DNA of 64,000 nucleotides from Candidatus Jettenia caeni (GTDB lineage Bacteria > Planctomycetota > Brocadiia > Brocadiales > Brocadiaceae). Below, piece after piece: positions 2,810-61,118 of the stretch (positions are counted from its first letter, which is position 1; every line of letters starts with the position of its first letter). The position numbers and the translations under genes were made by a program. Location of the stretch: contig BAFH01000003.1 of the NCBI GenBank assembly GCA_000296795.1, positions 558,401 to 622,400 on the forward strand, in the 5' to 3' direction. The notes beneath the pieces were generated by a model. That model was not told where the DNA came from, did not search any database, and saw only the letters and a program-made list of their open reading frames with translations.

Positions 2810-3823
2810 ATGGTTTTTGTCATTGAGAATCTCAAAGAATCCGATGTAGAAACAACTATAGGCCTTTTCCATAGCAGTATAAATGAATTACATGCTGAGA
2901 GCCAGGAGGTTGAACGCCTGCACTTTAAGGATAGGTATCCTGTGGAAGAGGTTAAGAAGCGACTCAATAATAAAGACTGTATTTATCTCATTGGCAAAGA
3001 AGATGGAAAGATCGTAGGGTTTCTGTTTGCCTGGGTCTCAGAAGGTGTGGGTAATATTCATTGGATGGGCATAGGCCCGGGATATAGAAAGAAGGGATAC
3101 GGGGATAAAATCTTACAGGAGACCCTGAGGCTCTTTATGGAAAGAGGTTGTTATGAGGCAAAGCTATTTACCTATCCCTCTGAGAAAGCAGCGTATCATC
3201 TTTTTCAAAAGCACGGATTTAAAGAGATAGCTTTTATTGATGATCGATTTTTTGGTGTGAATATTATTCTTATGGTGCGGAAGGTTGCCAGGGTACCAGA
3301 GGAGCATCGTTCAAAAAAGATTGTACTGGCAGGTGAGGCAGGTCAGGGAATTAAGCTTATGGCTCATGTACTGGCCAGTATTTTAGCGAAATTGGGAAAA
3401 GAGGTCTCCCTGAACCTTATCTATGATGCCACGGTACGTGGCGGCAATATTCGGGCAGAGATTGTATATTCAGATGATAAGATCGATGTTCCCTTTTTTG
3501 AAGAGGCAGATATTGGGCTTCAGCTTTCAAAAATACTCGATCCTTCAGTTAAGGCAAAACTTGTACTCATCGAATCATCTGCCTGTGATGCGGAATGTAA
3601 AAAGTGTGAACTCCGTTGTCCTGCAAGTGATCGTATTCCATTCGAGAGACTTGCCATAGAGCAATTTAACAGCCCTATCTTTGTTAATATGATTGCCCTT
3701 GGCAGGGTACTCAGCAAGATTGGTATTAATATTGAGACAGTAAACTTTGCTTCCGAATTTCCATCACAATTTTTCGATGAGAATATAAAGGCAGTACGCT
3801 ATGGCTATACGTACCAGGATTAG
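2810..3823 (+). CDS. GNAT acetyltransferase fused to 2-oxoacid:ferredoxin oxidoreductase gamma domain
   Basis: With the ATG at 2810 the protein is 337 aa; an in-frame start at 2669 would add 47 unconvincing residues. Residues about 5-155 form a GNAT fold, with the acetyl-CoA loop seen as IGPGYRKKGYGDKIL and the later AAYHLFQKHGFKEI helix. Residues about 167-337 match the gamma subunit/domain of pyruvate/2-oxoacid:ferredoxin oxidoreductases (GEAGQGIKLMAHVLA, then VRGGNIRAEIVYSD and VPFFEEADIG), plus a CDAECKKCELRC cysteine cluster. No alpha or beta catalytic subunit lies nearby, so the gamma part is an orphan here. It overlaps the fumarase alpha gene by 23 bp, which implies co-transcription and perhaps a shared role in reductive TCA or 2-oxoacid metabolism (inference). 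The role of the acetyltransferase half is unknown. Confidence 0.8.
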   Translation: MVFVIENLKESDVETTIGLFHSSINELHAESQEVERLHFKDRYPVEEVKKRLNNKDCIYLIGKEDGKIVGFLFAWVSEGVGNIHWMGIGPGYRKKGYGDKILQETLRLFMERGCYEAKLFTYPSEKAAYHLFQKHGFKEIAFIDDRFFGVNIILMVRKVARVPEEHRSKKIVLAGEAGQGIKLMAHVLASILAKLGKEVSLNLIYDATVRGGNIRAEIVYSDDKIDVPFFEEADIGLQLSKILDPSVKAKLVLIESSACDAECKKCELRCPASDRIPFERLAIEQFNSPIFVNMIALGRVLSKIGINIETVNFASEFPSQFFDENIKAVRYGYTYQD

Positions 3824-4658
3824 CGCATCCGAAATAATTGAAAAGGTGGCTCAGCTTTGCATAGATGCCAACTTCAATTTAAATGGCGATGTTTCTACTG
3901 CCCTGGAAGATTCATATGAGGCGGAAGGATCTCCTGTTGCAAAAGAGATACTTGCAGAGTTATTAGAGAACGCGAGAATTGCCCGTACATGCCAGATGCC
4001 AATATGCCAGGATACCGGAGTTGCAGTTGTTTTTGTAGAATTGGGCGAGCATGTAGAGGTTACCGGGGGACGTCTTTATAATGCCATTCATGAAGGTGTC
4101 CGTAAAGGATATACGGAAGGTTTCCTGCGAAAATCGATTGTTACAGACCCTCTCAACCGAATCAATACGGGCGATAATACACCGGCTATTATCCATACAG
4201 AGCTTATACCTGAAGATTATCTAAAGATTACTCTTATGGCTAAAGGTGGCGGATGTGAGAATATGAGCCGTATTGCTATGCTAACACCATCTGATGGCAA
4301 AGAAGGTGTAATCAATTTTGTAGGAGAAACCGTAAAGATAGCACAAGCTAATCCGTGTCCACCTATTATTGTAGGTGTTGGGATTGGTGGTACATTTGAT
4401 TATGCCGCCCTCTTGGCCAAGAAGGCACTATTGAGAGATCTGGGGACGAAGCATAGTGATCCTGATACTGTTGCGTTGGAACAAGAGATGTTGGGGCGGA
4501 TAAACAATTTGGGCATTGGTGCACAAGGACTTGGCGGCTGGATTACGGCTATGGCTGTCCATGTGGAGCGCTACCCATGTCATATTGCAAGTTTACCGGT
4601 AGCTGTGAATATCGAATGCCATGCTCATCGGGTTAAAACCGTATTATTAGGAAAATAG
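3801..4658 (+). CDS. class I fumarate hydratase (or L-tartrate dehydratase-like) alpha subunit
   Basis: 285 aa, the length of the alpha subunit/N-terminal half of [4Fe-4S] class I fumarases. Cysteines expected to bind the cluster are in CQMPICQDTG (residues 64 and 69), GGGCENMSR (about 150) and NPCPPIIVGVGIGGT (about 185). It catalyses reversible hydration of fumarate to malate together with the beta subunit one base downstream. The two-gene form is typical of anaerobes and archaea. The start lies 23 bp inside the preceding gene, so translation is probably coupled. Tartrate dehydratase (TtdAB) is homologous, but fumarase is the more likely role in a central-metabolism setting. Confidence 0.92.
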   Translation: MAIRTRISASEIIEKVAQLCIDANFNLNGDVSTALEDSYEAEGSPVAKEILAELLENARIARTCQMPICQDTGVAVVFVELGEHVEVTGGRLYNAIHEGVRKGYTEGFLRKSIVTDPLNRINTGDNTPAIIHTELIPEDYLKITLMAKGGGCENMSRIAMLTPSDGKEGVINFVGETVKIAQANPCPPIIVGVGIGGTFDYAALLAKKALLRDLGTKHSDPDTVALEQEMLGRINNLGIGAQGLGGWITAMAVHVERYPCHIASLPVAVNIECHAHRVKTVLLGK

Positions 4659-4659
4659 T

Positions 4660-5217
4660 ATGTCAGAGATACTGTATCTAAAAACATCTATGATAGAGAA
4701 TGATATTCCCCTTCTCAGGATTGGGGATAAGGTTATGATTAGCGGAGTTATTTATACCGCCAGGGATGCAGCACATAAACGGCTTGTGGAGCTTATTGAT
4801 CAGGGTAAAGAACTGCCTTTTGATGTGCGGAATCAAATTATCTATTATGTCGGCCCAAGCCCCTCCCGCCCTGGCAATCCTATTGGTTCTTGTGGTCCAA
4901 CCACGAGCTACCGAATGGACGTATATACACCTCAATTATTGTCAAAAGGTCTCAAGGCAACCATAGGGAAAGGTAATCGCTCTCAGCGTGTTATTGAGGC
5001 TATGGTACATTACAAAGCTGTTTATTTTGCTGCTACAGGCGGTGCGGCTGCTTTGCTGGCAAAAGCCATAAAAAAGGCAGATGTTATTGCCTACAAAGAC
5101 TTGGGTGCTGAAGCTATCATGAGACTTGAAGTTGAGAATTTTCCCGTAGTAGTTGCTAATGACATATATGGGAATGATTTGTACAAAGAAGGGGTTACAA
5201 AATATGTTAGGATATAA
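4660..5217 (+). CDS. class I fumarate hydratase beta subunit
   Basis: 185 aa, matching the C-terminal/beta portion of class I fumarases. The hallmark segment GPSPSRPGNPIGSCGPTTSYRMD (broken here as PGNPIGSCGPTTS plus YRMD) forms part of the substrate pocket, and ATGGAAALLAKAIKKADV follows. The ATG is one base after the alpha-subunit stop, so the two are made together. A dispersed palindromic repeat follows at 5295. Confidence 0.92.
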   Translation: MSEILYLKTSMIENDIPLLRIGDKVMISGVIYTARDAAHKRLVELIDQGKELPFDVRNQIIYYVGPSPSRPGNPIGSCGPTTSYRMDVYTPQLLSKGLKATIGKGNRSQRVIEAMVHYKAVYFAATGGAAALLAKAIKKADVIAYKDLGAEAIMRLEVENFPVVVANDIYGNDLYKEGVTKYVRI

Positions 5218-5340: not shown

Positions 5341-5424
5341 ATAACAATCCTTTGGTCTCATTTACTTTATAATTTGTGAAGTTTGTAGTTGCACGAGAGA
5401 AAGGCTATGAGGAGATTATTAGCT

Positions 5425-6723
5425 ATGAAAAAAATTTTATATATTGTATTGGATGGACTCGGGGATGGAAAGTATCCTTGTAAAGAGCTTGATAATCGTA
5501 CACCTTTGGAGGCAGCATCTACCCCTACTATGGATACGCTGGCAAAAGAAGGGCAGACCGGGGTGATGTATACGGTAGGAAAAGGCATCGCACCTGAATC
5601 TGACATTGCGGTGATTAGTATCCTGGGATATGATGCCATGAAATATTATACCGGGCGAGGCCCTTTAGAAGCGCTTGCTGCAGGAATAAAAATCAGCGAT
5701 GGTGATCTTGCCTTTCGGGCAAATTTTGCTACAAGAGGAAGCGGAAGGGCTATAAAGGATCGTCGTGTCGGAAGAAATCTTTCTACAGAAGAGGCAGCGC
5801 AACTCTGTAAAGAAATTAACAAAAAAGTAAAATTGACTTCCGCTCCTTCTACCTTTCAATTAAAAAATACCCTTGAATATAGAGCTGTATTAGTCATCCG
5901 CGGTGTAAAGAAGAAGCTTTCCGGATATGTTACCAATACGGATCCTGCATATACAAAACATGGTCTCCTGGGAGTTGCAAGAGAAACGGGGAGTTTTGAG
6001 AATATTGTTGAGTATTGTACGCCGACAAAAGACTGTCCGGACACCGGGGCTGCATATCGTTCTGCATTACTGGTAAATGAATTTACCCTTAAAAGTTGTG
6101 AGGTGTTGGATCAATCCGAAATTAATAAAGAGCGTATAAAAAAGGGGTTTCTTCCCGCAAATCTTGTTCTTCTGAGAGATGCCGGTGATCACCTTCCGAA
6201 ACTTCCTGCTATGAAGAGTAAATTTAAGAAGAATTTTGGATGTTTTGTAGAGATGCCGACCGAGGAGGGTATTGCGTTATTGACGGGTATGAAGATAGTT
6301 CCTCTTCCTCCTCCCACACAAGATCTGGAAAAAGATTATACTTTACGCTCCGAGATGACGATAAAACATATGAAAAAGTACGATGGGCTTTACATTCATA
6401 TTAAGGGACCAGATGTGCCTGGGCATGATGGTGATGCATTGAAGAAAAAAACGGTGATTGAGACGATTGATCAGTATTACCTTGCACCCTTAATTAATCA
6501 TATAGACCTTGATAAAACTATTGTTGCAATCACCGCCGACCATTCAACTCCTTGCAAACTAAAATCACACTCAGATGATCCCGTTCCTTTACTTATTTGT
6601 GGTGGGGGCATTAAACCAGATAATACAAAATCCTTTTCAGAAAAGGTTTGCAGTACAGGGAAGATTGGGAAAATACTCGGTGTTCAGCTTTTGCCATTGC
6701 TGGTCAAATATGCAAATAAGTAA
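5425..6723 (+). CDS. apgM: cofactor-independent phosphoglycerate mutase, archaeal (ApgM) type
   Basis: 432 aa from the ATG at 5425, which has a GAGGAG ribosome site 10 bp upstream; an ATG at 5389 in frame is less likely. The protein is an alkaline-phosphatase-superfamily metalloenzyme interconverting 3- and 2-phosphoglycerate. Visible motifs are the N-terminal metal-binding LDGLGDGKYPC, the region of the catalytic serine SDIAVISILGYD, HIKGPDVPGHDGD, and the C-terminal metal ligands TADHSTPCKLKSHSDDPVP. This is the short archaeal type, unlike the roughly 510-aa bacterial GpmI, and is frequent in Planctomycetes and deep-branching bacteria. The end overlaps the AsmA-like gene by 14 bp. Confidence 0.92.
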   Translation: MKKILYIVLDGLGDGKYPCKELDNRTPLEAASTPTMDTLAKEGQTGVMYTVGKGIAPESDIAVISILGYDAMKYYTGRGPLEALAAGIKISDGDLAFRANFATRGSGRAIKDRRVGRNLSTEEAAQLCKEINKKVKLTSAPSTFQLKNTLEYRAVLVIRGVKKKLSGYVTNTDPAYTKHGLLGVARETGSFENIVEYCTPTKDCPDTGAAYRSALLVNEFTLKSCEVLDQSEINKERIKKGFLPANLVLLRDAGDHLPKLPAMKSKFKKNFGCFVEMPTEEGIALLTGMKIVPLPPPTQDLEKDYTLRSEMTIKHMKKYDGLYIHIKGPDVPGHDGDALKKKTVIETIDQYYLAPLINHIDLDKTIVAITADHSTPCKLKSHSDDPVPLLICGGGIKPDNTKSFSEKVCSTGKIGKILGVQLLPLLVKYANK

Positions 6724-9681: not shown

Positions 9682-11589
9682 ATGTATACGATAGGAATCG
9701 ATATTGGTTCGATGTCGACGAACGGGATTTTGTTAAATGAAAAAAAAGAGATTCTTTCTTCTGTAATTATTCCAACTGGTGCCAGCAGTAAAAAAGCAGC
9801 AGATAAAACATATCATCAGATACTTACGGAAAATAAATTATCAGAAAAGGATATTGATTATATTATTGCTACAGGATACGGACGTATAAAAGTACCATTT
9901 GCTCATGAAGTTGTAACGGAGATTACCTGCCACGCCAAGGGGGCTAATTATTATTTTCCCAAGGCCCGGACTATTATTGACATCGGGGGGCAGGATAGTA
10001 AGGTTATTAAGGTTGATGCAAATGGAAACGTCCTTGATTTTGTTATGAATGATAAGTGTGCTGCAGGAACGGGCCGGTTCCTGGAGGTTATGGCCAGGAC
10101 ATTAGAAATAGATCTGGAAGATATGGGCGGGCTTTCACTCAACGGAAAAGAGAATGTTTCTGTTAGCAGTCTCTGTACGGTTTTTGCGGAATCTGAAGTA
10201 GTATCTCTTATTGGCGCTGACCATAAAGCAGCAGACATCTGCCGGGGATTACATATTTCTATTGCTAAACGTATCACTGCACAGGTCAAGAGAATTGGCC
10301 TGGAAGAAGAAATTGTTATGACGGGTGGAGTTGCAAAAAATATTGGTGTTGTAGCGGAGTTAGAGAGAAATCTTGGTTGTAAGATCAGGATATCGGAAGA
10401 ACCTCAAATCAATGGGGCGCTTGGGGCTGCATTGATCGCCCTGGAAAAGGCACGATCAAAAGTCAGTACCTCCACATCCGTTTCCGGAAACACCTCAACG
10501 GAAATATCCATTGCGGAGTTTTCGGTAGAAGATCATAATTTGCCTAAGATTGGATATTTTTGTTCTTATACCCCGGTAGAACTTATTCGTGCTGCAGGAT
10601 TTCATCCCGTCAGGATTAAGGGCGCTGAAAAGGAATCGTGTGCTGCTAATGAAGTGCTTTGTGGCAATATTTGCCCCTATATCAAAGCGGTTGTTGATCA
10701 AAAAATCAACGGTAATCTGGAAGATTTTAAAGGCATGGTATTCGTTAATTCATGTGATGGAATGCGCAGGCTCTATGATGCATGGATTCGATTGGACGAA
10801 GGGAAAAAGACATTTAACTATATCCTGGATATTCCAAAAAATACCGATGATGCCGCAGTTTATTACTATGCAAACCTGCTAAAAAATTTAAAGGAAAAGC
10901 TCGAATCGTATTTTACCTTGAAAATTCACCATGATGATATAAATCATAGTATTTCCCTGTATAATGCAGCCCGGGAAAGGGTACGGTTGTTTTTACAAAA
11001 GTACTGGAGCGGATACATCGGACAATCTGGATATGAAATATTTTCCTTATTAAAGAAGGGTGTTAACGTCCTTCCAGAGAAATTCAATGTATACCTGAAT
11101 CATGTTATGAAGCAGAAAGGTGATGTTCGCGATACACGGGATATACCCCGGCTCTTTATCTGGGGTAGTATCATGGAGAACGAAAAAATTATGAAGGTCA
11201 TTGAAGATGCTGGCGCCAAGGTCGTTGCCGAGGATTTATGTAACGGCAGCAGATACTTTGATGCCCAAATTAGCATGGGCAATGACCCCATTTTCTCTAT
11301 TGCCAAAAGATACATCACGCGCGCTCCATGTTCCCGTATGGTAAACATCTTCGAGAGAATTAACAATGTATTAGCGATAATGCAGGAAAAATCGATTCAT
11401 GGGGCAATTTACCATACCCTGAAGTTTTGCGATCATAATCTCTTGGATTATCCGGTGATTAAAAAGACATTCCACGAGAAAAATATTCCGCTCCTTCATC
11501 TTAATTGTGATTATACTGCAAGCAGTGAAGGGCAAATCAAGACACGTGTCGAGGCATTTCTCGAACAATTAACCAGCACTCCTAAGTAA
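9682..11589 (+). CDS. 2-hydroxyacyl-CoA dehydratase activase fused to a dehydratase D-type subunit
   Basis: 635 aa, two domains. Residues 1-260 are an ASKHA ATPase of the HgdC/BadF/BcrA type: phosphate-binding GIDIGSMSTNG, IDIGGQDSK, and the two cysteines that bridge the homodimer's [4Fe-4S] cluster, in DKCAAGTGRF (C126) and SSLCTVFAES (C165). MTGGVAKN is the adenosine motif. Residues about 290-635 match the HgdB/FldC-type dehydratase subunit (cysteine-bearing IGYFCSYTPVELIRAAG, NSCDGMRRLYD). The activase injects a high-energy electron into the dehydratase using ATP. The next gene supplies the second dehydratase-type subunit. The substrate is unknown: 2-hydroxyacyl-CoA dehydration or benzoyl-CoA-type reduction. 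Confidence 0.85.
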   Translation: MYTIGIDIGSMSTNGILLNEKKEILSSVIIPTGASSKKAADKTYHQILTENKLSEKDIDYIIATGYGRIKVPFAHEVVTEITCHAKGANYYFPKARTIIDIGGQDSKVIKVDANGNVLDFVMNDKCAAGTGRFLEVMARTLEIDLEDMGGLSLNGKENVSVSSLCTVFAESEVVSLIGADHKAADICRGLHISIAKRITAQVKRIGLEEEIVMTGGVAKNIGVVAELERNLGCKIRISEEPQINGALGAALIALEKARSKVSTSTSVSGNTSTEISIAEFSVEDHNLPKIGYFCSYTPVELIRAAGFHPVRIKGAEKESCAANEVLCGNICPYIKAVVDQKINGNLEDFKGMVFVNSCDGMRRLYDAWIRLDEGKKTFNYILDIPKNTDDAAVYYYANLLKNLKEKLESYFTLKIHHDDINHSISLYNAARERVRLFLQKYWSGYIGQSGYEIFSLLKKGVNVLPEKFNVYLNHVMKQKGDVRDTRDIPRLFIWGSIMENEKIMKVIEDAGAKVVAEDLCNGSRYFDAQISMGNDPIFSIAKRYITRAPCSRMVNIFERINNVLAIMQEKSIHGAIYHTLKFCDHNLLDYPVIKKTFHEKNIPLLHLNCDYTASSEGQIKTRVEAFLEQLTSTPK

Positions 11590-11604
11590 AGAGTAAGTGA
11601 AACT

Positions 11605-12945
11605 ATGATATCAATTCGTAAATTTAAAGTATTAATAGACCCGTTTCTACGCCGTATTTCTCCCATATTATTTAAAGAACTTTTACGGTTTCTTATGATA
11701 TATCATTTCTTTTATCGGGGAAATAAGAAGAAGGGGCTAATCTCTCTGAATGTTCAGACCCGTGTCGGCGTGAAGCATCTTTATAACACATTTACCCACC
11801 CAAAGCGAACGATCTGGACGACAATGTTTGTCCCTTCAGAAATTCTTTTCGCTATGGGGCTGTATCCATTTTGTCTTGAAATCGGTGCAGCGCTCTTTGC
11901 AGGTATTGGACAAAGTTCACGAGGGCTCTTAGAGGCAGAATCATACGGAGTTCCTACTGATATTTGTTCCTTTCACCGGTCTGCAATCGGGCATGTATCC
12001 AGAAATCTATTTCCTAAAAACATCCTTCAGGCTGCAACTACAACACTATGCGACAATAATACAAAGACGACAAAGATATGTGAGTCTATGACGGGGAAAG
12101 AAACTATTGTCCTTGATGTTCCGTACGAGGCAGATGATTATTCTGTTAACTATCTTGCGAAGCAACTTGAGGATTTCACGAAACGGCTAGAAATCGTAAC
12201 AGGTCAGAAGATGAGACAAGAGGCATTTGAAAGGGCGATAGAGTACTCAAATCAAACGCGAGAGAAAATGCTTGAAATCAATGAATTGAGAAAGGACCCG
12301 CATAGTCCTCTTCCCGGTAGTAATGCCCTGGGTTTTATGTTTCCCGGATACTTATTAATCGGTTCGCCTCTTTCAGTAGAGTTTTTTGCCAGCCTTGCCG
12401 CCGAGCTACGTGAAAAGATTGAAGAAAGCAAAAGAAATAACAGAATACCACCAAAAGATATTATAAGAATTCTCTGGCTAGAGCTAAAACCTTATTTTAA
12501 TGTTGATTTTTTGACAAAATTAGAGAGAGACCAAGGGGTAAGGATCGTCTTTGAAGAAACGAATTACGTTTATTGGGATGCGTTAGACCCTCAAAAACCT
12601 TACGAGAGTTTGGCAAAGAAACTCATTACCAGCCATTATAATGGGCCATTGGAACGGCGTATTGAGGTTACCAAGAGGCTTGCCAGGGAATATGAGGTGG
12701 ATGGTGTGATTGTTTTCTCAACATGGGGTTGTAGAAGAAATAACGCTGCTGTGCCTGCTCTAAAAAGAGAACTGAACAAAATGGGTTATCCACTGCTCAG
12801 CCTTGATGGAGATTGTGTGGATGATCATAACTATATGCCAGGACAGTTTTCTACAAGAATAGAAGGTTTTCTGGAAATGTTACGTGGAAGAAAAGCTACT
12901 ACCACCAGTCCACACTATGAGACCTGTGCTGCTGGTGTGGCTTAA
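11605..12945 (+). CDS. 2-hydroxyacyl-CoA dehydratase family subunit
   Basis: 446 aa, starting 15 bp after the activase fusion, so almost surely the same transcript. It shares the dehydratase-subunit layout: WTTMFVPSEILFAMGLYPF near residue 72, cysteines in PTDICSFHRSAIGH (about 115-128) that could ligate an Fe-S cluster, a central NALGFMFPGY, and a C-terminal Rossmann-like half with VDGVIVFSTWGCRRNN and LSLDGDCVDDHNY. The cysteine spacing differs from textbook HgdA/B, so the cluster and substrate are uncertain. The N-terminal 60 residues are basic and hydrophobic, perhaps membrane-associating. Confidence 0.78.
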   Translation: MISIRKFKVLIDPFLRRISPILFKELLRFLMIYHFFYRGNKKKGLISLNVQTRVGVKHLYNTFTHPKRTIWTTMFVPSEILFAMGLYPFCLEIGAALFAGIGQSSRGLLEAESYGVPTDICSFHRSAIGHVSRNLFPKNILQAATTTLCDNNTKTTKICESMTGKETIVLDVPYEADDYSVNYLAKQLEDFTKRLEIVTGQKMRQEAFERAIEYSNQTREKMLEINELRKDPHSPLPGSNALGFMFPGYLLIGSPLSVEFFASLAAELREKIEESKRNNRIPPKDIIRILWLELKPYFNVDFLTKLERDQGVRIVFEETNYVYWDALDPQKPYESLAKKLITSHYNGPLERRIEVTKRLAREYEVDGVIVFSTWGCRRNNAAVPALKRELNKMGYPLLSLDGDCVDDHNYMPGQFSTRIEGFLEMLRGRKATTTSPHYETCAAGVA

Positions 12946-50186: not shown

Positions 50187-50544
50187 GTAATTTACATTAT
50201 ATCTTTGGAGTTCAATAATGATCCGGGAGGAATACATGTTACTTAAGTATGGGTGAGTACACCTGTTAAGGTGGCGGTGCCATTCCCGGATTTTGTGGAT
50301 AAGGTAAGGACTCTTCACAATCTGCCTTTTTTGTATCTCTCAAAATCTCAAGGATGTTTTTAGTTTATAACTTACATACTATCCAGCGAGAGATATAGTC
50401 CCCATTCATTCTCAGTACCATCCCCAAGGGAAAGATACCGCCCTCCTTCCAATAGTTAATTGGATAATGTTTTTGTACTTCGCTTTAAAAATTCATCGAA
50501 GCTTTGTTTCTCAACATCTATAACTATACATGGAGAATATAACT

Positions 50545-53235
50545 ATGGTATCTTTATTCATTGATGGTAAGAAGGTAGAGTCGGAATCTTTTCAAACAAT
50601 TTTACAAGCAGCCCAAAAAGCTGGAATTCATATCCCTACTTTGTGTTACGACCCACGTTTAGCTCCTACGGGAGCTTGCCGCATGTGTGTAGTGGAGGTC
50701 GAGGGTGCACGGTCTCTGGTGGCATCCTGTGCAACTCCGGTATCTAAAGACATGAAGGTCTCTACCCGCAGTGAATCAGTTATGCGTGCGCGTAAACTTA
50801 ATTTAGAACTTATCTGGTCTCATCATCCCAATGATTGTCTTACCTGCGATAAAACCGGGGAATGTCAGCTTCAGAAGCTCATGTATGAATATGAAGTGAA
50901 AACCTCAAGGTTTATGAACTGTAATCCATCGCCTGTACCTGATGACTCGAATCCGGCTATTTACCGGGATATGAGTAAATGCATACTTTGTGGAAAATGT
51001 GTCAGGATTTGTGATGAAGTACAGAATCAGCATGTCTGGGAATTTTCGAGTCGGGGAATGGGGACTTCAGTTGCAACTGCCTTTGAGAAACCATTAAAAA
51101 ACTCCGGTTGTGTATTTTGCGGACACTGTGTTTCCGTATGTCCCGTCGGCGCTCTCATGGATAAGCCTGCAGTAAAGAAAGGCCGTCCATGGGAAACAAG
51201 AAAAGTGCGTACCGTTTGTTGTTACTGTGGTGTGGGTTGCAGTCTTGTCCTTCACATAAAGCAGAATGAAATCCTGAAGGTAACGGCAGATACCCATTCA
51301 CCTCCTAATTATGGCAGCTTATGTGTTAAAGGGCGATACGGCTTTGAATTCCATAAAAGCACTGATCGATTGAAGTCGCCTCTGATTCGCGATCACCTGA
51401 ATCAACCTTTCAGGGAAGCAAGCTGGGAGGAGGCCATTCATCTGGTTGCCAGAAGATTTATGGAGATCAAGTTGAAATACGGACCTGATGCTTTTGGATG
51501 TCTTAGTTCCTCAAGAGGTACAAACGAGGAGAATTATCTAGCTCAAAAATTTACTCGTGCCGTGATGGGCACAAATAATATGGATAATTGTGCGCGGGTA
51601 TGTCATGCGCCATCGGTTACAGGACTCAGGGCTGCATTGGGAAGCGGAGCGGCCACCAATTCTCTTGCTGATATTGAGGGTGCAGAAGCGCTTATTGTCA
51701 GTGGTTCAAATACTACTGAAGCACATCCGGTAGCAGCTCTGAAGATAAAAAAGGCGGTACGGCAGAACGGAGCTAAATTGATTGTAATCGACCCGCGTGA
51801 AATAGAACTTGTCCAGTACGCAACGGTATGGCTCCGTTTGAAACCGGGCACCAATGTGGCTCTTATTAATGGCTTGCTCCATGTCATTTTAAAAGAGGAT
51901 TTGGAGAATAAAGAGTTTATCCAGCAACGTACGGAAAACATAGATATGCTGAAACAAGTGGTCGTACAGTATACACCTGAAAGAGTAGAAGAAATTACAG
52001 GGGTTCCTCAGGAGGATATTATTAAGGCTGCCAGGATCTATGCGGGTACAAGGAAGGGTATGATCGTCTATGGATTGGGAATGACCGAGCATAAGGCCGG
52101 TTCGCATGGTGTTATGTCTCTTGCAAATTTATCTTTGATTACCGGAAACATTGGGAGGCCCAATACCGGTATCAATCCTCTCCGTGGGCAAAATAATGTT
52201 CAGGGTTCTTGTGATATGGGTGCCTTGCCTGATGTTTATCCTTGCTATCAAAAAGCAGATGATCCTATTGTTCATAAAAAGTTTTCTGAAGCATGGGGCT
52301 GTCAACTTCCTGTGAAACCAGGTTTAAAGGAACCTCAAATGTATAGAGAAGCCCTGGCAGGAAAGGTAAAGGCAATGTACATCATTGGATACGATCCTGC
52401 GGCAACACAAGCGAATACCCATCATGTGGTTTCTGCCATGAAAGAGTTTGAGTTTCTTGTGGTACAGGAGCTTTTTATGACAGAAACAGCTAAATTAGCC
52501 CATGTAGTCCTTCCTGCCAGCTGCTTTTTTGAGAAGGAAGGTACTTTTACCAATGCGGAGAGAAGAGTCAGGCGATTGAACCAGGCTATACCACCGCCAG
52601 AAGGGATAAGGCATGATTGGGAGATTATGTGTTTCATTGCTAATGCGATGGGATATCCGATGCATTACAACCATCCAGGCGAAATTATGAGGGAAATTGC
52701 CAGCCTCACCCCAGAATTTGCAGGAATTGATTATGAACGGCTTGAGGGGGATGGGCTGGTATGGCCAGTATGGGATAAGAAGCATCCTGGTACGCCCATT
52801 TTGCACAAAGATACCTTTACGAGAGGAAAAGGACGGCTCAATGACCTCTTGTATACCCCTTCAGAGGAATTACCTGATAATGACTATCCTTTATATTTAA
52901 CAACAGGCCGCCGTCTCTATCATTATAATAACGGTTCGATGTCACTTCGGAATCCGGAGATTCGTTCAATCAGTTCTGAAGAATTTATAGAGATACATCC
53001 CAGTGATGCTGAGCCACTTGGTATAAAAACAGGAGATATCGTGAGAGTAACATCGCGACGGGGATCGTTGGAAGTGCAAGCAGATGTTACAACGAAGTCC
53101 AGACCGGGGAGCGTGTTCCTATCCTTTCATTTCCCGGAGACCCCAACGAATGTTTTAACTGGTCCCGGAGAGGATATATTGGCGCTTACCCCTGAATATA
53201 AGGTATGTGCTGTAAAAGTGGAGTTGCCTTCATAA
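50545..53235 (+). CDS. formate dehydrogenase alpha subunit (NuoG-like N-terminus, Cys-type)
   Basis: 896 aa from the ATG at 50545 (GGAGA 8 bp upstream; ATG at 50530 also in frame). Order: [2Fe-2S] ferredoxin domain (CRMCVVEV), His-Cys cluster HHPNDCLTCDKTGECQ, two [4Fe-4S] sites CILCGKCVRICDE and CVFCGHCVSVCPVG, then the molybdopterin oxidoreductase with CCYCGVGCSLV and the metal-ligand cysteine in NCARVCHAPSVTGL (Cys, not selenocysteine). C-terminal Molydop-binding domain (TTGRRLYHYNNGSM). It oxidises formate, or reduces CO2, with electrons to NAD or ferredoxin through partners not encoded here. It is probably first gene of a corrinoid one-carbon operon. Confidence 0.93.
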   Translation: MVSLFIDGKKVESESFQTILQAAQKAGIHIPTLCYDPRLAPTGACRMCVVEVEGARSLVASCATPVSKDMKVSTRSESVMRARKLNLELIWSHHPNDCLTCDKTGECQLQKLMYEYEVKTSRFMNCNPSPVPDDSNPAIYRDMSKCILCGKCVRICDEVQNQHVWEFSSRGMGTSVATAFEKPLKNSGCVFCGHCVSVCPVGALMDKPAVKKGRPWETRKVRTVCCYCGVGCSLVLHIKQNEILKVTADTHSPPNYGSLCVKGRYGFEFHKSTDRLKSPLIRDHLNQPFREASWEEAIHLVARRFMEIKLKYGPDAFGCLSSSRGTNEENYLAQKFTRAVMGTNNMDNCARVCHAPSVTGLRAALGSGAATNSLADIEGAEALIVSGSNTTEAHPVAALKIKKAVRQNGAKLIVIDPREIELVQYATVWLRLKPGTNVALINGLLHVILKEDLENKEFIQQRTENIDMLKQVVVQYTPERVEEITGVPQEDIIKAARIYAGTRKGMIVYGLGMTEHKAGSHGVMSLANLSLITGNIGRPNTGINPLRGQNNVQGSCDMGALPDVYPCYQKADDPIVHKKFSEAWGCQLPVKPGLKEPQMYREALAGKVKAMYIIGYDPAATQANTHHVVSAMKEFEFLVVQELFMTETAKLAHVVLPASCFFEKEGTFTNAERRVRRLNQAIPPPEGIRHDWEIMCFIANAMGYPMHYNHPGEIMREIASLTPEFAGIDYERLEGDGLVWPVWDKKHPGTPILHKDTFTRGKGRLNDLLYTPSEELPDNDYPLYLTTGRRLYHYNNGSMSLRNPEIRSISSEEFIEIHPSDAEPLGIKTGDIVRVTSRRGSLEVQADVTTKSRPGSVFLSFHFPETPTNVLTGPGEDILALTPEYKVCAVKVELPS

Positions 53236-53289
53236 ATTTATTGTAAAATAATAAGCTTCATATTTGGAGTTTGCCATTAGGAGGTGTTT

Positions 53290-54006
53290 ATGCAAAGGGA
53301 AAAAGCAGATATTTTAACTACATTAGCCCAGGCCGTAATTGATATGGACATAGACTGCGCTAAGGAAGCGGCCGCTGAGGTGATACGATGCAAAGTCGAC
53401 CCTTATACGGCAATAATGGATGGGCTTGCAAAAGGAATGGATAAGGTCAATGAGTTATTCGAAAATGAGGAATATTTTGTTCCGGAAATACTCCTCTGTG
53501 CCGATGCCATGTATGCAGGGATTGAGGTACTCAAACCTTATCTGCCAAAGGAAACTGCATGGAGTAAGAAAAAGGCCGTAATCGGTGTTGTTAAAGGTGA
53601 TACCCATGATATTGGGAAGAACCTGGTCAAGATAATGCTGGATAACGCCGGATTTGAAATGCATGATTTAGGCAGGAATGTACCGTATGCAAAGTTTGTT
53701 GATACTGCAGGAGAGTTACAGGCAGACCTTGTTTGTCTTTCTACTCTTATGACCACAACTATGGATGGTATGCAGGTGGTTATTGAAGGCCTTAAGAAGG
53801 CTGGTATAGCCTCCAGGGTTATGGTTGGTGGTGGACCAATATCTCCAGGGTTTGCAAGAAATATAGGGGCAGATGGATATGCAAAGAATGCTGCCGAGGC
53901 AGTTAAGGTTGCCAATGACATAGTGCAGCGTATTCCTTTCAGTCCTCTCATACTGAAAACGCCGGAGCTTGTAAGTGTTAAACGAGGGCAGGGAGGAACA
54001 CGATGA
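53290..54006 (+). CDS. corrinoid (B12-binding) methyltransferase protein
   Basis: 238 aa from the ATG at 53290 (AGGAGG 5 bp upstream; the GTG at 53284 overlaps that site). N-terminal four-helix cap (about 1-85) then a cobalamin-binding Rossmann domain with the base-off signature GDTHDIGKN (His107 as lower axial ligand) and the usual STLMTTTMDGMQ and VMVGGGPIS. Same architecture as MtaC/MttC/MtbC and the corrinoid proteins of O-demethylases. It carries the methyl group between two methyltransferases. The stop overlaps the next gene start (ATGA). Confidence 0.95.
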   Translation: MQREKADILTTLAQAVIDMDIDCAKEAAAEVIRCKVDPYTAIMDGLAKGMDKVNELFENEEYFVPEILLCADAMYAGIEVLKPYLPKETAWSKKKAVIGVVKGDTHDIGKNLVKIMLDNAGFEMHDLGRNVPYAKFVDTAGELQADLVCLSTLMTTTMDGMQVVIEGLKKAGIASRVMVGGGPISPGFARNIGADGYAKNAAEAVKVANDIVQRIPFSPLILKTPELVSVKRGQGGTR

Positions 54007-55055
54007 ATTCTCGGGATGAAATGACACCTAAGGAGAGATTACTGGCAGCCATACAGGGAAAGGAGATTGACAGGCTTTTGGTAAGCCCCCTGATTCTTAA
54101 CTTTGCATCCAGGAGTTTAAATCTGACTGTCAGGGACTTTTGTACAAATGGGAAGAATATGGGAGATGCCAACATTGCATGTTTTAAAAAATACCGGCAT
54201 GACATTGTGTATATCTTTTCTACCACTTCTACACTGGCTGAAGCTATGGGCACCAGAATGTACTTTCCAGAAGATGACGCACCACAGGTAGAAACTCCGT
54301 TTATACAAACGAGGGAAGACCTGAAAAAGCTCAAACCAGTAGACCCGGGAAAGGATGGCAGGATCCCCGTATACCTGGAAGCAATAAAACGATGTGTAGA
54401 TGCTATCGGGAATGATGTCTTTATCGTACCAGTTATCGGGGCACCGTTTACGACCTCAGCAGCCTTACGAGGAACGGAGAGATTTATAAAAGAACTCTAT
54501 ACAGATCCTGAATTAATACACACCCTGATGAGAGTTGCCACTCAATCGGTCAAAAACCTTGTCGATGCTTATGTAAGAGCCGGCGGTGTGCCAGTTACTG
54601 TTGAACCTATAGCTACCGGCTCGATGATAAGCGAAAAACATTTTAGAGAATTTGTCTTGCCCTATCTTAAAGAGGTGTACTCACACATCCATTCTTACAA
54701 CCTTCCGGGTGTGCTCCATATCTGTGGAAAGACAAAAAGGGTAATACAATGCATGGCTGAAAGTGGAGCCGACATCCTGAGTATTGATACTATCGATCTT
54801 TTAGAAGCTAAGGAATTAGTAGGAGAGCAGGTTTGTTTAATGGGAAATCTGAGTCCTGCTGATGGCATGCTGAAAGGAAATCCGGAGATTATAACTGCTA
54901 TGGTCAAGGATTGCCTAGCAAAGGCAGCAGACAATCCGAAGGGATATGTGGTAGCTACAGGATGCGAGGTTCCTATAAAAACACCTCATGAGAATATGAT
55001 TGCATTTCTCGAGGCAGGAAGAAGATTTGCCCGGCTTCCAATTAACTTGAATTAG
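54003..55055 (+). CDS. URO-D/MtaA-type corrinoid methyltransferase 1
   Basis: 350 aa. Uroporphyrinogen-decarboxylase fold; MtaA-like zinc site ligands H-x-C in VLHICGKT and a C-terminal Cys in VATGCEVPIKTPHENM. It lacks the arginine-rich substrate pattern of true UroD, so it is a methyltransferase acting on the corrinoid protein whose stop codon it overlaps. It could be the substrate demethylase (as in O-demethylases) or the one that passes methyl to tetrahydrofolate. Which is which with respect to the next gene cannot be read directly. Confidence 0.9.
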   Translation: MNSRDEMTPKERLLAAIQGKEIDRLLVSPLILNFASRSLNLTVRDFCTNGKNMGDANIACFKKYRHDIVYIFSTTSTLAEAMGTRMYFPEDDAPQVETPFIQTREDLKKLKPVDPGKDGRIPVYLEAIKRCVDAIGNDVFIVPVIGAPFTTSAALRGTERFIKELYTDPELIHTLMRVATQSVKNLVDAYVRAGGVPVTVEPIATGSMISEKHFREFVLPYLKEVYSHIHSYNLPGVLHICGKTKRVIQCMAESGADILSIDTIDLLEAKELVGEQVCLMGNLSPADGMLKGNPEIITAMVKDCLAKAADNPKGYVVATGCEVPIKTPHENMIAFLEAGRRFARLPINLN

Positions 55056-55119
55056 GTATTCATAAATTCTATTCAAGAACGTTATTGATAGGAAACTCTT
55101 TTCGAATCTCTTAATAACT

Positions 55120-56151
55120 ATGATAGAAAAAGAAAGACTTCTTAAAGTTCTTCAAGGCAAGCATGCCGATAGAACCCCCGTTATTTGTCCGGGTGGTATG
55201 ATGACTATGGCTAGCAGAGAGGTTATGGTAAAAACAGGTTGCCGATGGCCAGCAATCCATAGGGATGCGAAAAAAATGGCTGAACTTTCGATTGCTATGC
55301 ATAATGAAACAGGAATGGAGAATCTGGGTATTCCTTTTTGCATGACTGTAGAAGCTGAAGCTTTGGGTGGAGAGGTGGAGGACGGTGACGAGATTACGGA
55401 GCCTAGTATGGTTCATTATCCATTGAAGTCAGTAAAACAGTGGAGGGATCTAAAAGAAATCGATCCGTATAAAGATGGACGTCTTCCAACAATTCTTGAA
55501 TGTACAGCAATTGTAAGCCAAAAGATTCCAGACGTCCCTGTCATAGGTAATTTAGTCGGTCCTTTCAGTCTTGCTACCTCTCTGATTGATGCAATGATAC
55601 TGTTTAAAGCACTCAGACAGGAACCTGAAGATGTTCACGGTTTACTCTCATTTTTGATAAAGAACAGTATCAAGTATGGTGAGGCGCTTATCAAAAACGG
55701 CGCTGATCTTATTGTGATATCCGATCCTTCTGCAACTGGTGAGATACTCGGACCAAAACTATTCAAAGAGTTTGCAATTCCATATTTGAATAGAATGATA
55801 AACCATATCCATATGTTTGAGAAACCCGTTATCGTACATATATGTGGAGATATAAGCGCTATCTACGGCCCTCTCAATGAGCTTGGCGCTGAATGCATAA
55901 GTGTAGACTCTGCAGTAAACATAAAAGAGGCAAGGGCTATGATTCCAGGAAAAAAGCTTATGGGTAATGTAAGTACTATACTCTTACAAAATGGTCCCAT
56001 TAACACGATACAAAAGATATCAAAAAATCTTTTAGATTTCGGTATCGATATCCTTGCCCCGGCATGCGGTCTCAGTGCTAAAACGCCCGTTAGACATATA
56101 AAAGCTATGACAGAAATGGTAGCATCCAACTCTTATAAGAACAATTGCTAA
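55120..56151 (+). CDS. URO-D/MtaA-type corrinoid methyltransferase 2
   Basis: 343 aa, paralogous to the preceding gene but diverged (start MIEKERLLKVLQGKHADRTP, typical of MtaA/CmuA relatives). Zinc ligands in VIVHICGDI and PACGLSAKTPVRHI. With MT1 and the corrinoid protein it makes a complete methyl-transfer set. The RBS is weak, and 64 bp of AT-rich DNA separate it from MT1. Methyl donor candidates include methoxylated aromatics, methanol and methylamines; the specific MtaB/MttB catalytic subunits are absent, which favours the O-demethylase-like model (inference). Confidence 0.88.
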   Translation: MIEKERLLKVLQGKHADRTPVICPGGMMTMASREVMVKTGCRWPAIHRDAKKMAELSIAMHNETGMENLGIPFCMTVEAEALGGEVEDGDEITEPSMVHYPLKSVKQWRDLKEIDPYKDGRLPTILECTAIVSQKIPDVPVIGNLVGPFSLATSLIDAMILFKALRQEPEDVHGLLSFLIKNSIKYGEALIKNGADLIVISDPSATGEILGPKLFKEFAIPYLNRMINHIHMFEKPVIVHICGDISAIYGPLNELGAECISVDSAVNIKEARAMIPGKKLMGNVSTILLQNGPINTIQKISKNLLDFGIDILAPACGLSAKTPVRHIKAMTEMVASNSYKNNC

Positions 56152-56160
56152 GGTAACTAT

Positions 56161-57849
56161 ATGACTCATCATGTAAAACTGACTTTTTATCCCTCCAGAA
56201 TAACAGGATCTGTACCAAAAGGAATTACGATCCTTGAGGCAGCAAGAAAGCTTGGTGTTACTATTGAAGGTCCGTGCGGTGGTACCGGGAAGTGCGGGAA
56301 GGACCTTGTACAGATAAGAGTAAATAAGACCCTTACTACAGCGCTTGCCTGCAGAACTGTCGCAGAAACTGACATGGAAATTATCATCCCTTGTTATGAA
56401 AAGAAGACCATGAAGATTGTTGATGGCTTTTATACAGAGAATACAAGGAAACGAAATATCAATCCTTCTGTATGGAAAGATATGTTTTATAATGATCAGG
56501 GTGCTTGTTTTACAAAGGTATACATGAACGATAGACCCGTAGCTATTGAAGAGGGTGATACGGGATCTCAGATGTATGGAATTGCTTTAGACATTGGTAC
56601 AACAACATTAGTAGCATCACTTGTTAACCTTATCAATGGTGAAATAGCAGGCGCTGCTTCAACACTGAATCCCCTCGTATATTATGGTCATGATGTTATG
56701 TCACGGATAAAGTATTCAACATCACATCATGATGGCCTTCTCAGAATGCACAAAGAGCTTATATCCGCTATTAATCTTTTAATTTCTTTTGTATCATCTG
56801 AAAAAGGTGTAAAGCCAGAAAATATCTATCAAATCGTAGCATCCGGTAATACTACGATGCAGCATATCTTTTTAAATAAGGAAATCAAGGGAATTGGTGA
56901 GTATCCATATAAGGCTGAGGTGCTTAATACCTTTACCACGACAGCGAAAGAGCTTTCTATTCATAGAGCAGTATATGCCACAGTAACAACCCTTCCCTGT
57001 ATTTCAGCCTATGTTGGCGGGGATATAGTTTCCGGTCTTGTAGCTATTGACCATATGGTACACGGGCAGGCAAACCTGTATGCGATATCCAGAGATTTTA
57101 AAGATACTAAATTACCAGCCCTTTTTGTTGATATCGGCACCAATGGTGAAATGGTCCTTTTGCTGGAGAATGGAATGGTAGCGACATCCACTGCTGCGGG
57201 ACCGTGTTTTGAGGGGATGACCATAAGTTCGGGTATGAGAGCCGGAGAAGGTGCAATCGAGCATGTCTGTCTGGGAGATAAACTTTTCCTGGAAGTAATA
57301 GGGAATAGTCAGCCAAGGGGTATCTGTGGAAGCGGGCTTTTGGATATCGTTTCAGAACTTATACGGGTTGGACTTGTGAATTCTAAAGGGCGATTGCAGG
57401 GTAAGGAAGGCAATGGACTGCCTGAAGGGTATAAAAAATGTCTGTTCGAGAAAAACGGGAAACGGCATTTCCAATTATCAGATGACGTGGCAATATCACA
57501 GGAAGATATTCGGCAGGTTCAACTGGCGAAGGCGGCTATCAGGGCAGGTGTTGAGATTTTACTTGCCACCTGCAATAGGAAGCCAGAAGAACTTAGGGCG
57601 GTTATCATTGCAGGTGCATTTGGGTATCACTTGAAGCAAGAGAGTCTGTTCAGGGTCGGTTTTTTTCCGGAACTAAAAAATACAAGATTCTTTTTTGTTG
57701 GTAATTCAAGCCTGGAAGGCGCTGTAGGAATAATTCTGAATAAAGATTTAATAGATAAAGCAGCTCGTATTGCCAGCATTACACAGGTTATGGAACTCTC
57801 CCAAATTGCGGAATTTGAAGGCGTTTATATTAGGGAGATGCATTTTTGA
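56161..57849 (+). CDS. RACE protein (ASKHA ATPase, corrinoid reductive activator) with altered ferredoxin
   Basis: 562 aa. An N-terminal ferredoxin-like domain (C39, C45, C64) is followed by a linker and a large ASKHA ATPase (about 140-562: IALDIGTTTLVASLVNLING, FVDIGTNGEMVL, GICGSGLLDIVSEL, AGAFGYHLKQESL). Proteins of this kind (RamA, RACo) use ATP to drive electron transfer from low-potential reductant to inactivated Co(II) corrinoid. The third cluster cysteine, expected in CGKC, is Asp48 here (codon GAC, 56302-56304). It closes the FDH-corrinoid operon, 10 bp after MT2. Confidence 0.93.
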   Translation: MTHHVKLTFYPSRITGSVPKGITILEAARKLGVTIEGPCGGTGKCGKDLVQIRVNKTLTTALACRTVAETDMEIIIPCYEKKTMKIVDGFYTENTRKRNINPSVWKDMFYNDQGACFTKVYMNDRPVAIEEGDTGSQMYGIALDIGTTTLVASLVNLINGEIAGAASTLNPLVYYGHDVMSRIKYSTSHHDGLLRMHKELISAINLLISFVSSEKGVKPENIYQIVASGNTTMQHIFLNKEIKGIGEYPYKAEVLNTFTTTAKELSIHRAVYATVTTLPCISAYVGGDIVSGLVAIDHMVHGQANLYAISRDFKDTKLPALFVDIGTNGEMVLLLENGMVATSTAAGPCFEGMTISSGMRAGEGAIEHVCLGDKLFLEVIGNSQPRGICGSGLLDIVSELIRVGLVNSKGRLQGKEGNGLPEGYKKCLFEKNGKRHFQLSDDVAISQEDIRQVQLAKAAIRAGVEILLATCNRKPEELRAVIIAGAFGYHLKQESLFRVGFFPELKNTRFFFVGNSSLEGAVGIILNKDLIDKAARIASITQVMELSQIAEFEGVYIREMHF

Positions 57850-60942: not shown

Positions 60943-61013
60943 TACTGCCGAATTTGACGTATAGGTAGTTTAGGATTAAAGTTTGATTTTTCATAAATGT
61001 GCATTTTATTAAT

Positions 61014-61053
61014 AAAAAGCCGGGGCGTTTTTTAACGCAACGGCTTTTTTTAT
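61014..61053 (+). terminator. Rho-independent terminator after lipoprotein 1
   Basis: AAAAAGCCG (61014-61022) pairs with CGGCTTTTT (61041-61049), with an inner GCGTT/AACGC stem and a downstream T-run. It lies 72 bp after the stop of the first DUF11 gene. Confidence 0.88.
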
Positions 61054-61118
61054 TTATAAAAGATGTATCAATGCTATATGTTTACATTTTTAAATTTTTT
61101 AATAAAAGGATTATATGT

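What the first reader, a model, noticed from the sequence alone, without database searches (positions are those of the whole stretch)
2810..3823. Acetyltransferase fused to an orphan 2-oxoacid oxidoreductase gamma domain beside fumarase
GNAT and POR/KGOR-gamma domains share one uninterrupted frame; catalytic alpha/beta subunits are absent nearby, and the gene overlaps fumarase. The gamma domain could dock on a distant oxidoreductase while the GNAT half acetylates it or uses its acetyl-CoA product.
Basis: partly seen in the sequence, partly recalled or inferred. Interest (0 to 1): 0.5.

Follow-up and report, generated by a model that had tools for sequence, protein, structure and literature searches.

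The report
Acetyltransferase-tagged subunit of a TCA-cycle enzyme
In anammox bacteria and a few unrelated bacteria, the small third subunit of an enzyme of the central carbon cycle (probably 2-oxoglutarate:ferredoxin oxidoreductase) is made as one protein with an acetyltransferase; here it looks orphaned only because its partner genes lie elsewhere in the genome, and what the acetyltransferase part does is still unknown.

Summary
The fusion is real. Window 2810-3823 (+) encodes a 337-aa protein: GNAT domain (aa ~1-159) plus a 2-oxoacid:ferredoxin oxidoreductase gamma domain (aa ~168-337). It is no frame error: 47 of 59 genomes (own and relatives: Jettenia, Brocadia, Kuenenia, Scalindua, Anammoxibacter and others) carry it full length, as do one genome of another order and Acidobacteria/Aminicenantes records.

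It is not an orphan. In relatives it directly follows korB; in one family one gene string runs citrate-synthase-like - sucC - sucD - korD - korA - korB - [GNAT::korC] - fumA - fumB - apgM. In the window's family this is broken between korB and the fusion. The window genome's korDAB lie on another contig with no gamma beside them; gamma and korB co-occur (16 of 16 better-assembled genomes that have either).

Both halves are under purifying selection (median dN/dS 0.11 GNAT, 0.046 gamma), yet the GNAT half was lost twice while gamma stayed. So it is probably the gamma subunit of a split four-subunit 2-oxoglutarate oxidoreductase with a dispensable, built-in acyltransferase. That the GNAT acylates the complex or its ferredoxin is inference; a search for a tracking target lysine was null. 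My paper searches listed no description of it.

The parts
2810..3823 (+). GNAT::korC fusion gene (337 aa)
   Evidence: homologues align from the same Met
2810..3286 (+). GNAT domain, aa 1-159
   Evidence: Pfam PF00583; model aa 1-159 vs 3F0A Z 22.5, rmsd 1.8, 153 aligned
3086..3103 (+). acyl-CoA-binding motif A (R/Q-x-x-G-x-G/A): RKKGYG, aa 93-98
   Evidence: sequence; strict motif in 25 of 30 homologues; motif definition recalled
3311..3820 (+). gamma domain (POR, OFOR domain III), aa 168-337
   Evidence: PF01558; model vs 3ON3 Z 19.7, 6N2N_A Z 19.6, 8YS5_B Z 19.0
3584..3619 (+). Cys loop C259-x3-C263-x2-C266-x3-C270, followed by P271; lineage-restricted
   Evidence: four Cys in 17 of 30 rows, also in G064; pLDDT under 50 at aa 262-269
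3801..4658 (+). fumA, class I fumarase alpha subunit; starts inside the fusion gene
   Evidence: a 20-nt coding overlap is kept in 12 of 12 family f1 loci that show both genes (L073 shows no fumA)
4660..5217 (+). fumB, class I fumarase beta subunit
5389..6723 (+). apgM-type phosphoglycerate mutase, end of the conserved gene string
   Evidence: same order in family f2

Best explanation
The protein is the gamma subunit (domain III) of a four-subunit 2-oxoglutarate:ferredoxin oxidoreductase, KorDAB-C, carrying an N-terminal GNAT acyltransferase. In the window genome korD, korA and korB are encoded on another contig, so gamma is supplied in trans. Shown by sequence: the fusion, its conservation, its place after korB in relatives, the korDAB set without a neighbouring gamma, selection on both halves, and two losses of the GNAT half alone. 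Inferred: that gamma assembles with these KorDAB, and that the substrate is 2-oxoglutarate (sucCD neighbours, nearest solved relatives). Most likely mechanism of the GNAT half (inference, about 0.35): gamma docks as the wing beside the ferredoxin pocket and holds the GNAT next to the place where acyl-CoA is made, where it acylates the complex itself or its ferredoxin partner and so tunes activity to acyl-CoA level. It is accessory, since two lineages keep gamma without it.
For: Gene order: the fusion directly follows korB in 10 of 10 loci from other families of the order shown (L054-L058, L060, L061, L064, L066, L067), korA preceding in 9 of them; in the Acidobacteria and Aminicenantes loci; and in G064 (korB only). 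Own genome: 6 PF01558 and 6 PF01855 genes; by position five of each pair up, leaving this fusion and the korA of L080, which lies with korD, korB, sucC, sucD and an HMGL-type (citrate-synthase-like) gene. Co-occurrence of korB orthologue and gamma in 59 genomes: 46 both, 5 gamma only, 3 korB only, 5 neither (Fisher p 0.0022); in the 19 genomes with 90 or fewer contigs 16 both, 3 neither, none discordant. G009 lacks a korB orthologue and keeps only a 59-aa tail of the fusion. dN/dS medians 0.11 (GNAT) and 0.046 (gamma) over 14 unsaturated pairs of 253. Two GNAT losses with gamma intact, G011 and G017, at separate places of the gamma tree. KorA and KorB are nearest to 1YD7 and 8YS5 among solved chains. 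Domain III as wing beside the modelled ferredoxin: PMC5020499, passages only.
Against: No gamma-level NCBIfam cut-off is reached (TIGR03710 51.9 of 482.75 bits, TIGR02175 20.3 of 81.1), so the gamma half is divergent; KorA and KorB also stay below the cut-offs of the models they hit. No lysine of KorA, KorB or KorD clearly tracks the GNAT half, which speaks weakly against a fixed target in the complex. The strict acyl-CoA motif fails in 5 of 30 homologues and in both Acidobacteria/Aminicenantes rows tested. Flux work on Kuenenia stuttgartiensis found 2-oxoglutarate made oxidatively and an incomplete TCA cycle (PMC8027424, passages), so the enzyme's flux may be small there. 8 of 59 genomes are discordant for korB and gamma; all 8 have more than 90 contigs. 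No korA was found near the fusion in L066 or L189. Assembly in trans is not shown.
Confidence: 0.6

Rival explanations
1. The GNAT half is a working acetyltransferase with a target unrelated to the oxidoreductase (a small molecule or another protein, as for PaiA, YpeA or RimI-like enzymes); fusion only ties its amount to the TCA enzyme.
For: Best sequence and fold matches of the GNAT half are general GNATs: YpeA 2PDO, Ta0374 3F0A and PaiA 1TIQ. Losses of the GNAT half leave gamma intact. No target lysine tracks it.
Against: The fusion is kept at the same place after korB in Planctomycetes and in Acidobacteria/Aminicenantes, which favours a role at the enzyme.
Confidence: 0.3
2. The GNAT half does not transfer acyl groups but binds acyl-CoA as a sensor or CoA-delivery module for the oxidoreductase.
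For: The GNAT half drifts faster than gamma, and the strict motif A fails in 5 of 30 homologues (L024, L035, L066, L067, L069) and reads R-x-x-G-x-V in L161 and L162.
Against: 25 of 30 homologues keep the strict motif; no substrate or catalytic residue could be tested.
Confidence: 0.25
3. The gamma half is a relic without a partner, and the gene is kept only for its GNAT half.
For: korA and korB are absent from the window.
Against: gamma is the more conserved half (median dN/dS 0.046 vs 0.11), outlives the GNAT half in G011 and G017, and occurs with korB.
Confidence: 0.03
4. The fusion is an assembly or frameshift artefact.
For: None found.
Against: Full length in 47 of 59 genomes, among them single-contig G001, G012 and G024, and in records outside the phylum.
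Confidence: 0.01

Closest known systems
KorC/OorC gamma subunit of 2-oxoglutarate:acceptor oxidoreductase (Helicobacter OorDABC 8YS5; Campylobacter OorC 3G2E; Geobacter gamma 3ON3)
   Same: POR domain (PF01558), same fold over aa 168-337 (Z 18.4-19.7), partner subunit genes D, A, B present
   Different: N-terminal GNAT domain; gene separated from korDAB in this family; some members carry a four-Cys loop; no gamma-level NCBIfam cut-off reached
Two-subunit OFOR with domain order III-I-II (Sulfolobus StOFOR, PMC5020499; Magnetococcus OGOR 6N2N)
   Same: domain III corresponds to our gamma half (6N2N_A Z 19.6)
   Different: there domain III is fused to alpha (StOFOR); here to a GNAT domain
GNAT acetyltransferases of the PaiA/Ta0374/YpeA/RimI kind
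   Same: fold (3F0A Z 22.5), motif A in the window protein
   Different: not a stand-alone enzyme; RimI model TIGR01575 not reached (52.4 of 86.4 bits); substrate unknown

Membership tests
2-oxoacid:ferredoxin oxidoreductase gamma subunit (PF01558) | POR domain above the curated Pfam cut-off | tested here: met
   60.6 bits vs 27.4
2-oxoacid:ferredoxin oxidoreductase gamma subunit (PF01558) | gamma fold | tested here: met
   3ON3 Z 19.7 rmsd 2.3, 158 aligned; 6N2N_A Z 19.6; 8YS5_B Z 19.0
gamma subunits named by NCBIfam (PorC_KorC and others) | score above an NCBIfam gamma model cut-off | tested here: not met
   TIGR02175 20.3 of 81.1, NF006323 42.9 of 235, TIGR03710 51.9 of 482.75 bits
KorDABC complex | gene linkage with korA and korB | tested here: met
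   met in relatives, not in the window genome
KorDABC complex | alpha, beta and delta genes present in the same genome without another gamma beside them | tested here: met
   L080; gamma and alpha inventory
KorDABC complex | 2-oxoglutarate:ferredoxin oxidoreductase activity and physical assembly | not testable with these tools
   needs protein
GNAT acetyltransferase | GNAT domain above the Pfam cut-off and GNAT fold | tested here: met
   PF00583 59.1 vs 20.7 bits; 3F0A Z 22.5
GNAT acetyltransferase | acyl-CoA motif A R/Q-x-x-G-x-G/A (recalled) | tested here: met
   RKKGYG in the window protein; 25 of 30 rows of A1, failing in L024, L035, L066, L067, L069; L161 and L162 have V at the last position
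GNAT acetyltransferase | acyl transfer | not testable with these tools
   needs protein
RimI (S18-alanine acetyltransferase) | TIGR01575 cut-off | tested here: not met
   52.4 of 86.4 bits

The most novel reading that the evidence does not exclude
A TCA-cycle oxidoreductase with a covalently attached acyltransferase that reads the enzyme's own acyl-CoA output (succinyl-CoA, or the acetyl-CoA pool) and acylates the complex or its ferredoxin, giving a built-in feedback switch on low-potential electron flow in anammox bacteria and in some Acidobacteria/Aminicenantes.
Probability: 0.2. Interest if true: 0.75.

Novelty: new variant of a known kind. Interest (0 to 1): 0.48.

Why it matters
It explains an apparently orphan gamma gene as one half of a broken TCA operon, proposes the missing gamma of the predicted 2-oxoglutarate oxidoreductase in anammox bacteria, and points to a conserved acyltransferase on a central-carbon enzyme that two lineages have lost. 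Natural GNAT-less and GNAT-bearing sister species make the role of the domain directly testable.

Tried and rejected
Frame error: rejected. Orphan gamma: rejected. GNAT half as mere filler: disfavoured for family f1 by dN/dS (23 of the 26 full-length f1 genes, 253 pairs, 239 dropped because saturated or too close; the 14 kept are not independent; one pair, G026-G031, has GNAT dN/dS 0.31, and in G000-G002 gamma is higher than GNAT). Cys loop as a defining cofactor site: not general, absent from 13 of 30 rows. Target-lysine search: null. In one search I had counted L204 (G018, where no fusion was found) with the GNAT-bearing rows; one search repeats it without L204. Of 11 well-kept Lys columns, three in KorB change in some GNAT-less row: K144 (E in G011, V in the Woesearchaeota locus, K in G017), K224 (R in the Woesearchaeota locus only), K228 (R in G017 only); none changes in all three. 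Invariant C114 of the GNAT half looked special, but YpeA also has a Cys there (alignment), so I give it no weight. Gamma tree (one FastTree run): the GNAT-less Woesearchaeota gamma L164 groups with the Acidobacteria/Aminicenantes fusions (support 0.97), so loss there and transfer of the fusion cannot be told apart; several deep supports are weak. In the alignment the L161 sequence was cut about 10 residues late (its start is at 2740). The limit of 90 contigs was chosen by me after seeing the rows. The pdb_via list is filled mainly by GNAT chains; absence of a family there was not used. Paper searches: titles and starts of abstracts seen; (four terms) returned 0 papers, one search listed 15 of 150, 10 of 28, 10 of 101; nothing listed speaks of a GNAT-KOR gamma fusion, and only openly licensed papers are held, so absence from print is limited to these searches.

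Full report
Observation. Window 2810-3823 (+) is one open frame of 337 codons and a stop. A longer TTG-started frame from 2669 exists, but homologues align from the ATG at 2810. Pfam places a GNAT domain at aa 39-137 and a POR (gamma) domain at aa 177-333, both above the curated cut-offs. The gene ends 23 nt inside the fumarase alpha gene (3801-4658), followed by fumarase beta (4660-5217) and an apgM phosphoglycerate mutase (5389-6723). The AlphaFold model (30-row alignment, mean pLDDT 82.6, pTM 0.54) gives two domains: aa 1-159 match Ta0374 (3F0A, Z 22.5, rmsd 1.8) and aa 168-337 match solved gamma subunits or domains (3ON3 Z 19.7, 6N2N_A Z 19.6, 8YS5_B Z 19.0). The low pTM means that the relative placement of the domains should not be trusted.

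Not an artefact. In 59 genomes (the window's own and relatives), 47 carry the full-length fusion. Two carry pieces cut by contig ends (G027, G054), two carry gamma without an intact GNAT half (G011, G017), one carries a 59-aa tail (G009), and seven show no orthologue (G004, G018, G025, G034, G040, G041, G044) (assignment by me from its rows). Named records include Jettenia, Brocadia, Kuenenia, Loosdrechtia, Scalindua and Anammoxibacter. The window genome shares its genus with G002, whose contig C10 has the same length as a record of Candidatus Jettenia ecosi J2. In the class search, 1 of 13 genomes outside the order has the fusion (G064). In the phylum draw, 32 of 392 genomes matched, all 32 within the order. 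Outside the phylum it is in an Acidobacteria and an Aminicenantes record and in 3 of 396 genomes drawn from the latter's phylum, its own genome included (in which only some candidates of each genome are scored).

Where it belongs. In 10 of 10 loci from other families of the order shown the gene just upstream is korB, overlapping or nearly touching the fusion. korA precedes in 9 of them (not found in L066), and sucD and sucC upstream in 7 (not L057, which starts at a contig end, nor L064 and L066). korD lies just before korA in 7 of the loci that I checked for it (L054, L055, L058, L060, L061, L064, L067). In the Acidobacteria and Aminicenantes loci the order is korD-korA-korB-[GNAT::gamma]. 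In G064 korB precedes, but no korA was found in the stretch. In family f2 (L061, L067) one string runs HMGL-type (citrate-synthase-like), sucC, sucD, korD, korA, korB, fusion, fumA, fumB, apgM, with a few other ORFs between. The window's family has this string broken between korB and the fusion: the 5' half is L080 on contig C4 (HMGL-type, sucC, sucD, korD, korA, korB), the 3' half is the window. In single-contig G001, G011, G012 and G024 the two halves are 92 kb to about 2 Mb apart in linear coordinates; in G032 they are about 1.8 kb apart. That the unbroken order is the ancestral one is inference.

The HMGL-type gene reaches no NCBIfam cut-off. I call it citrate-synthase-like because a paper proposes a Re-citrate synthase beside a succinate-CoA ligase in Kuenenia stuttgartiensis (PMC8027424, passages), and another reports one in MAG nzgw511 (PMC8862662, passages), whose contig has the length of the contig of L061.

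Partner test. The window genome has six gamma-domain and six alpha-domain genes. By position five pairs sit together; the two left over are this fusion and the korA of L080. Across 59 genomes, korB orthologue and gamma are both present in 46, gamma only in 5, korB only in 3, neither in 5 (Fisher p 0.0022; two broken korB genes, G023 and G029, and the GNAT-less gammas of G011 and G017 counted as present). In the 19 genomes with 90 or fewer contigs there is no discordance: 16 both, 3 neither. The Fisher test ignores relatedness and assembly gaps. G009, rated 100% complete, has no korB orthologue and kept only the tail of the fusion.

Selection and loss. Over 14 unsaturated pairs of 253 (23 sequences of the family), median dN/dS is 0.11 for the GNAT half and 0.046 for gamma. 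The GNAT half has been lost at least twice with gamma intact: in G011 (congener of Kuenenia hertensis) homology to the fusion begins near its residue 145, and G017 (contig length equals Brocadia sapporoensis NZ_MJUW02000092) retains both ends of a GNAT half with its middle gone and the frame broken. They lie apart in the gamma tree. So gamma is the core and the GNAT half is useful but dispensable.

Substrate and mechanism. KorA and KorB are nearest to 1YD7 (E 1.7e-67) and 8YS5 (E 5.5e-57 for alpha, 9.5e-53 for beta) among solved chains, and sit beside succinate-CoA ligase, so 2-oxoglutarate/succinyl-CoA is the likely pair; this is inference. In a solved OFOR, domain III forms wings around a pocket into which ferredoxin was modelled (PMC5020499, passages only). 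A GNAT domain on gamma would therefore lie near that pocket (inference). Acylation of the complex or ferredoxin is the reading I prefer, at about 0.35, against a GNAT with an unrelated target and a non-catalytic acyl-CoA sensor. The strict acyl-CoA motif is kept in 25 of 30 homologues. No lysine in KorA, KorB or KorD (42, 46 and 41 rows) changes in all three GNAT-less rows; three KorB columns change in one or two of them.

Link to physiology. In Kuenenia stuttgartiensis labelling showed oxidative 2-oxoglutarate synthesis and an incomplete TCA cycle (PMC8027424, passages only). The words 'korA', 'fumarase' and 'acetyltransferase' do not occur in the main text of that paper. That G011 is this species is my recollection from its size, not a tool result.

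Verdict. The 'orphan beside fumarase' reading is replaced by 'gamma subunit of a split TCA operon'. The GNAT attachment is a genuine, conserved variant of a known enzyme subunit whose function remains to be measured.

Noticed in passing
3584-3619 (aa 259-270 of the fusion); also L189: Four-Cys loop C-x3-C-x2-C-x3-C-P in the gamma half, in 17 of 30 rows (all 14 f1 rows and three f4 rows) and in G064, missing in the other f4 and the f2 and f5 rows; could bind a metal or Fe-S cluster.
   Followed up: partly
L047 (G020:C1:691815-692198): A second, GNAT-only partial copy of the fusion (70% identical over aa 21-141), with two TAA stops when the match is extended upstream, in a genome that also has the full fusion.
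   Followed up: no
5389-6723; L054-L058, L060; L073: The gene next to the fusion string is an apgM-type phosphoglycerate mutase in families f1 and f2, but what looks by eye like a gpmI-type mutase in Scalindua-type genomes and beside the decayed tail in G009.
   Followed up: no
9682-12945: Two adjacent ORFs that look by eye like a 2-hydroxyacyl-CoA dehydratase activator and dehydratase subunit.
   Followed up: no
50530-57849: By eye a formate-dehydrogenase-like gene followed by a corrinoid protein, two methyltransferase-like genes and a corrinoid activator-like gene, a methyl-transfer cluster.
   Followed up: no
59347-60942 and 60999-62708: Two tandem, similar ORFs that look by eye like repeat-rich surface proteins.
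   Followed up: no
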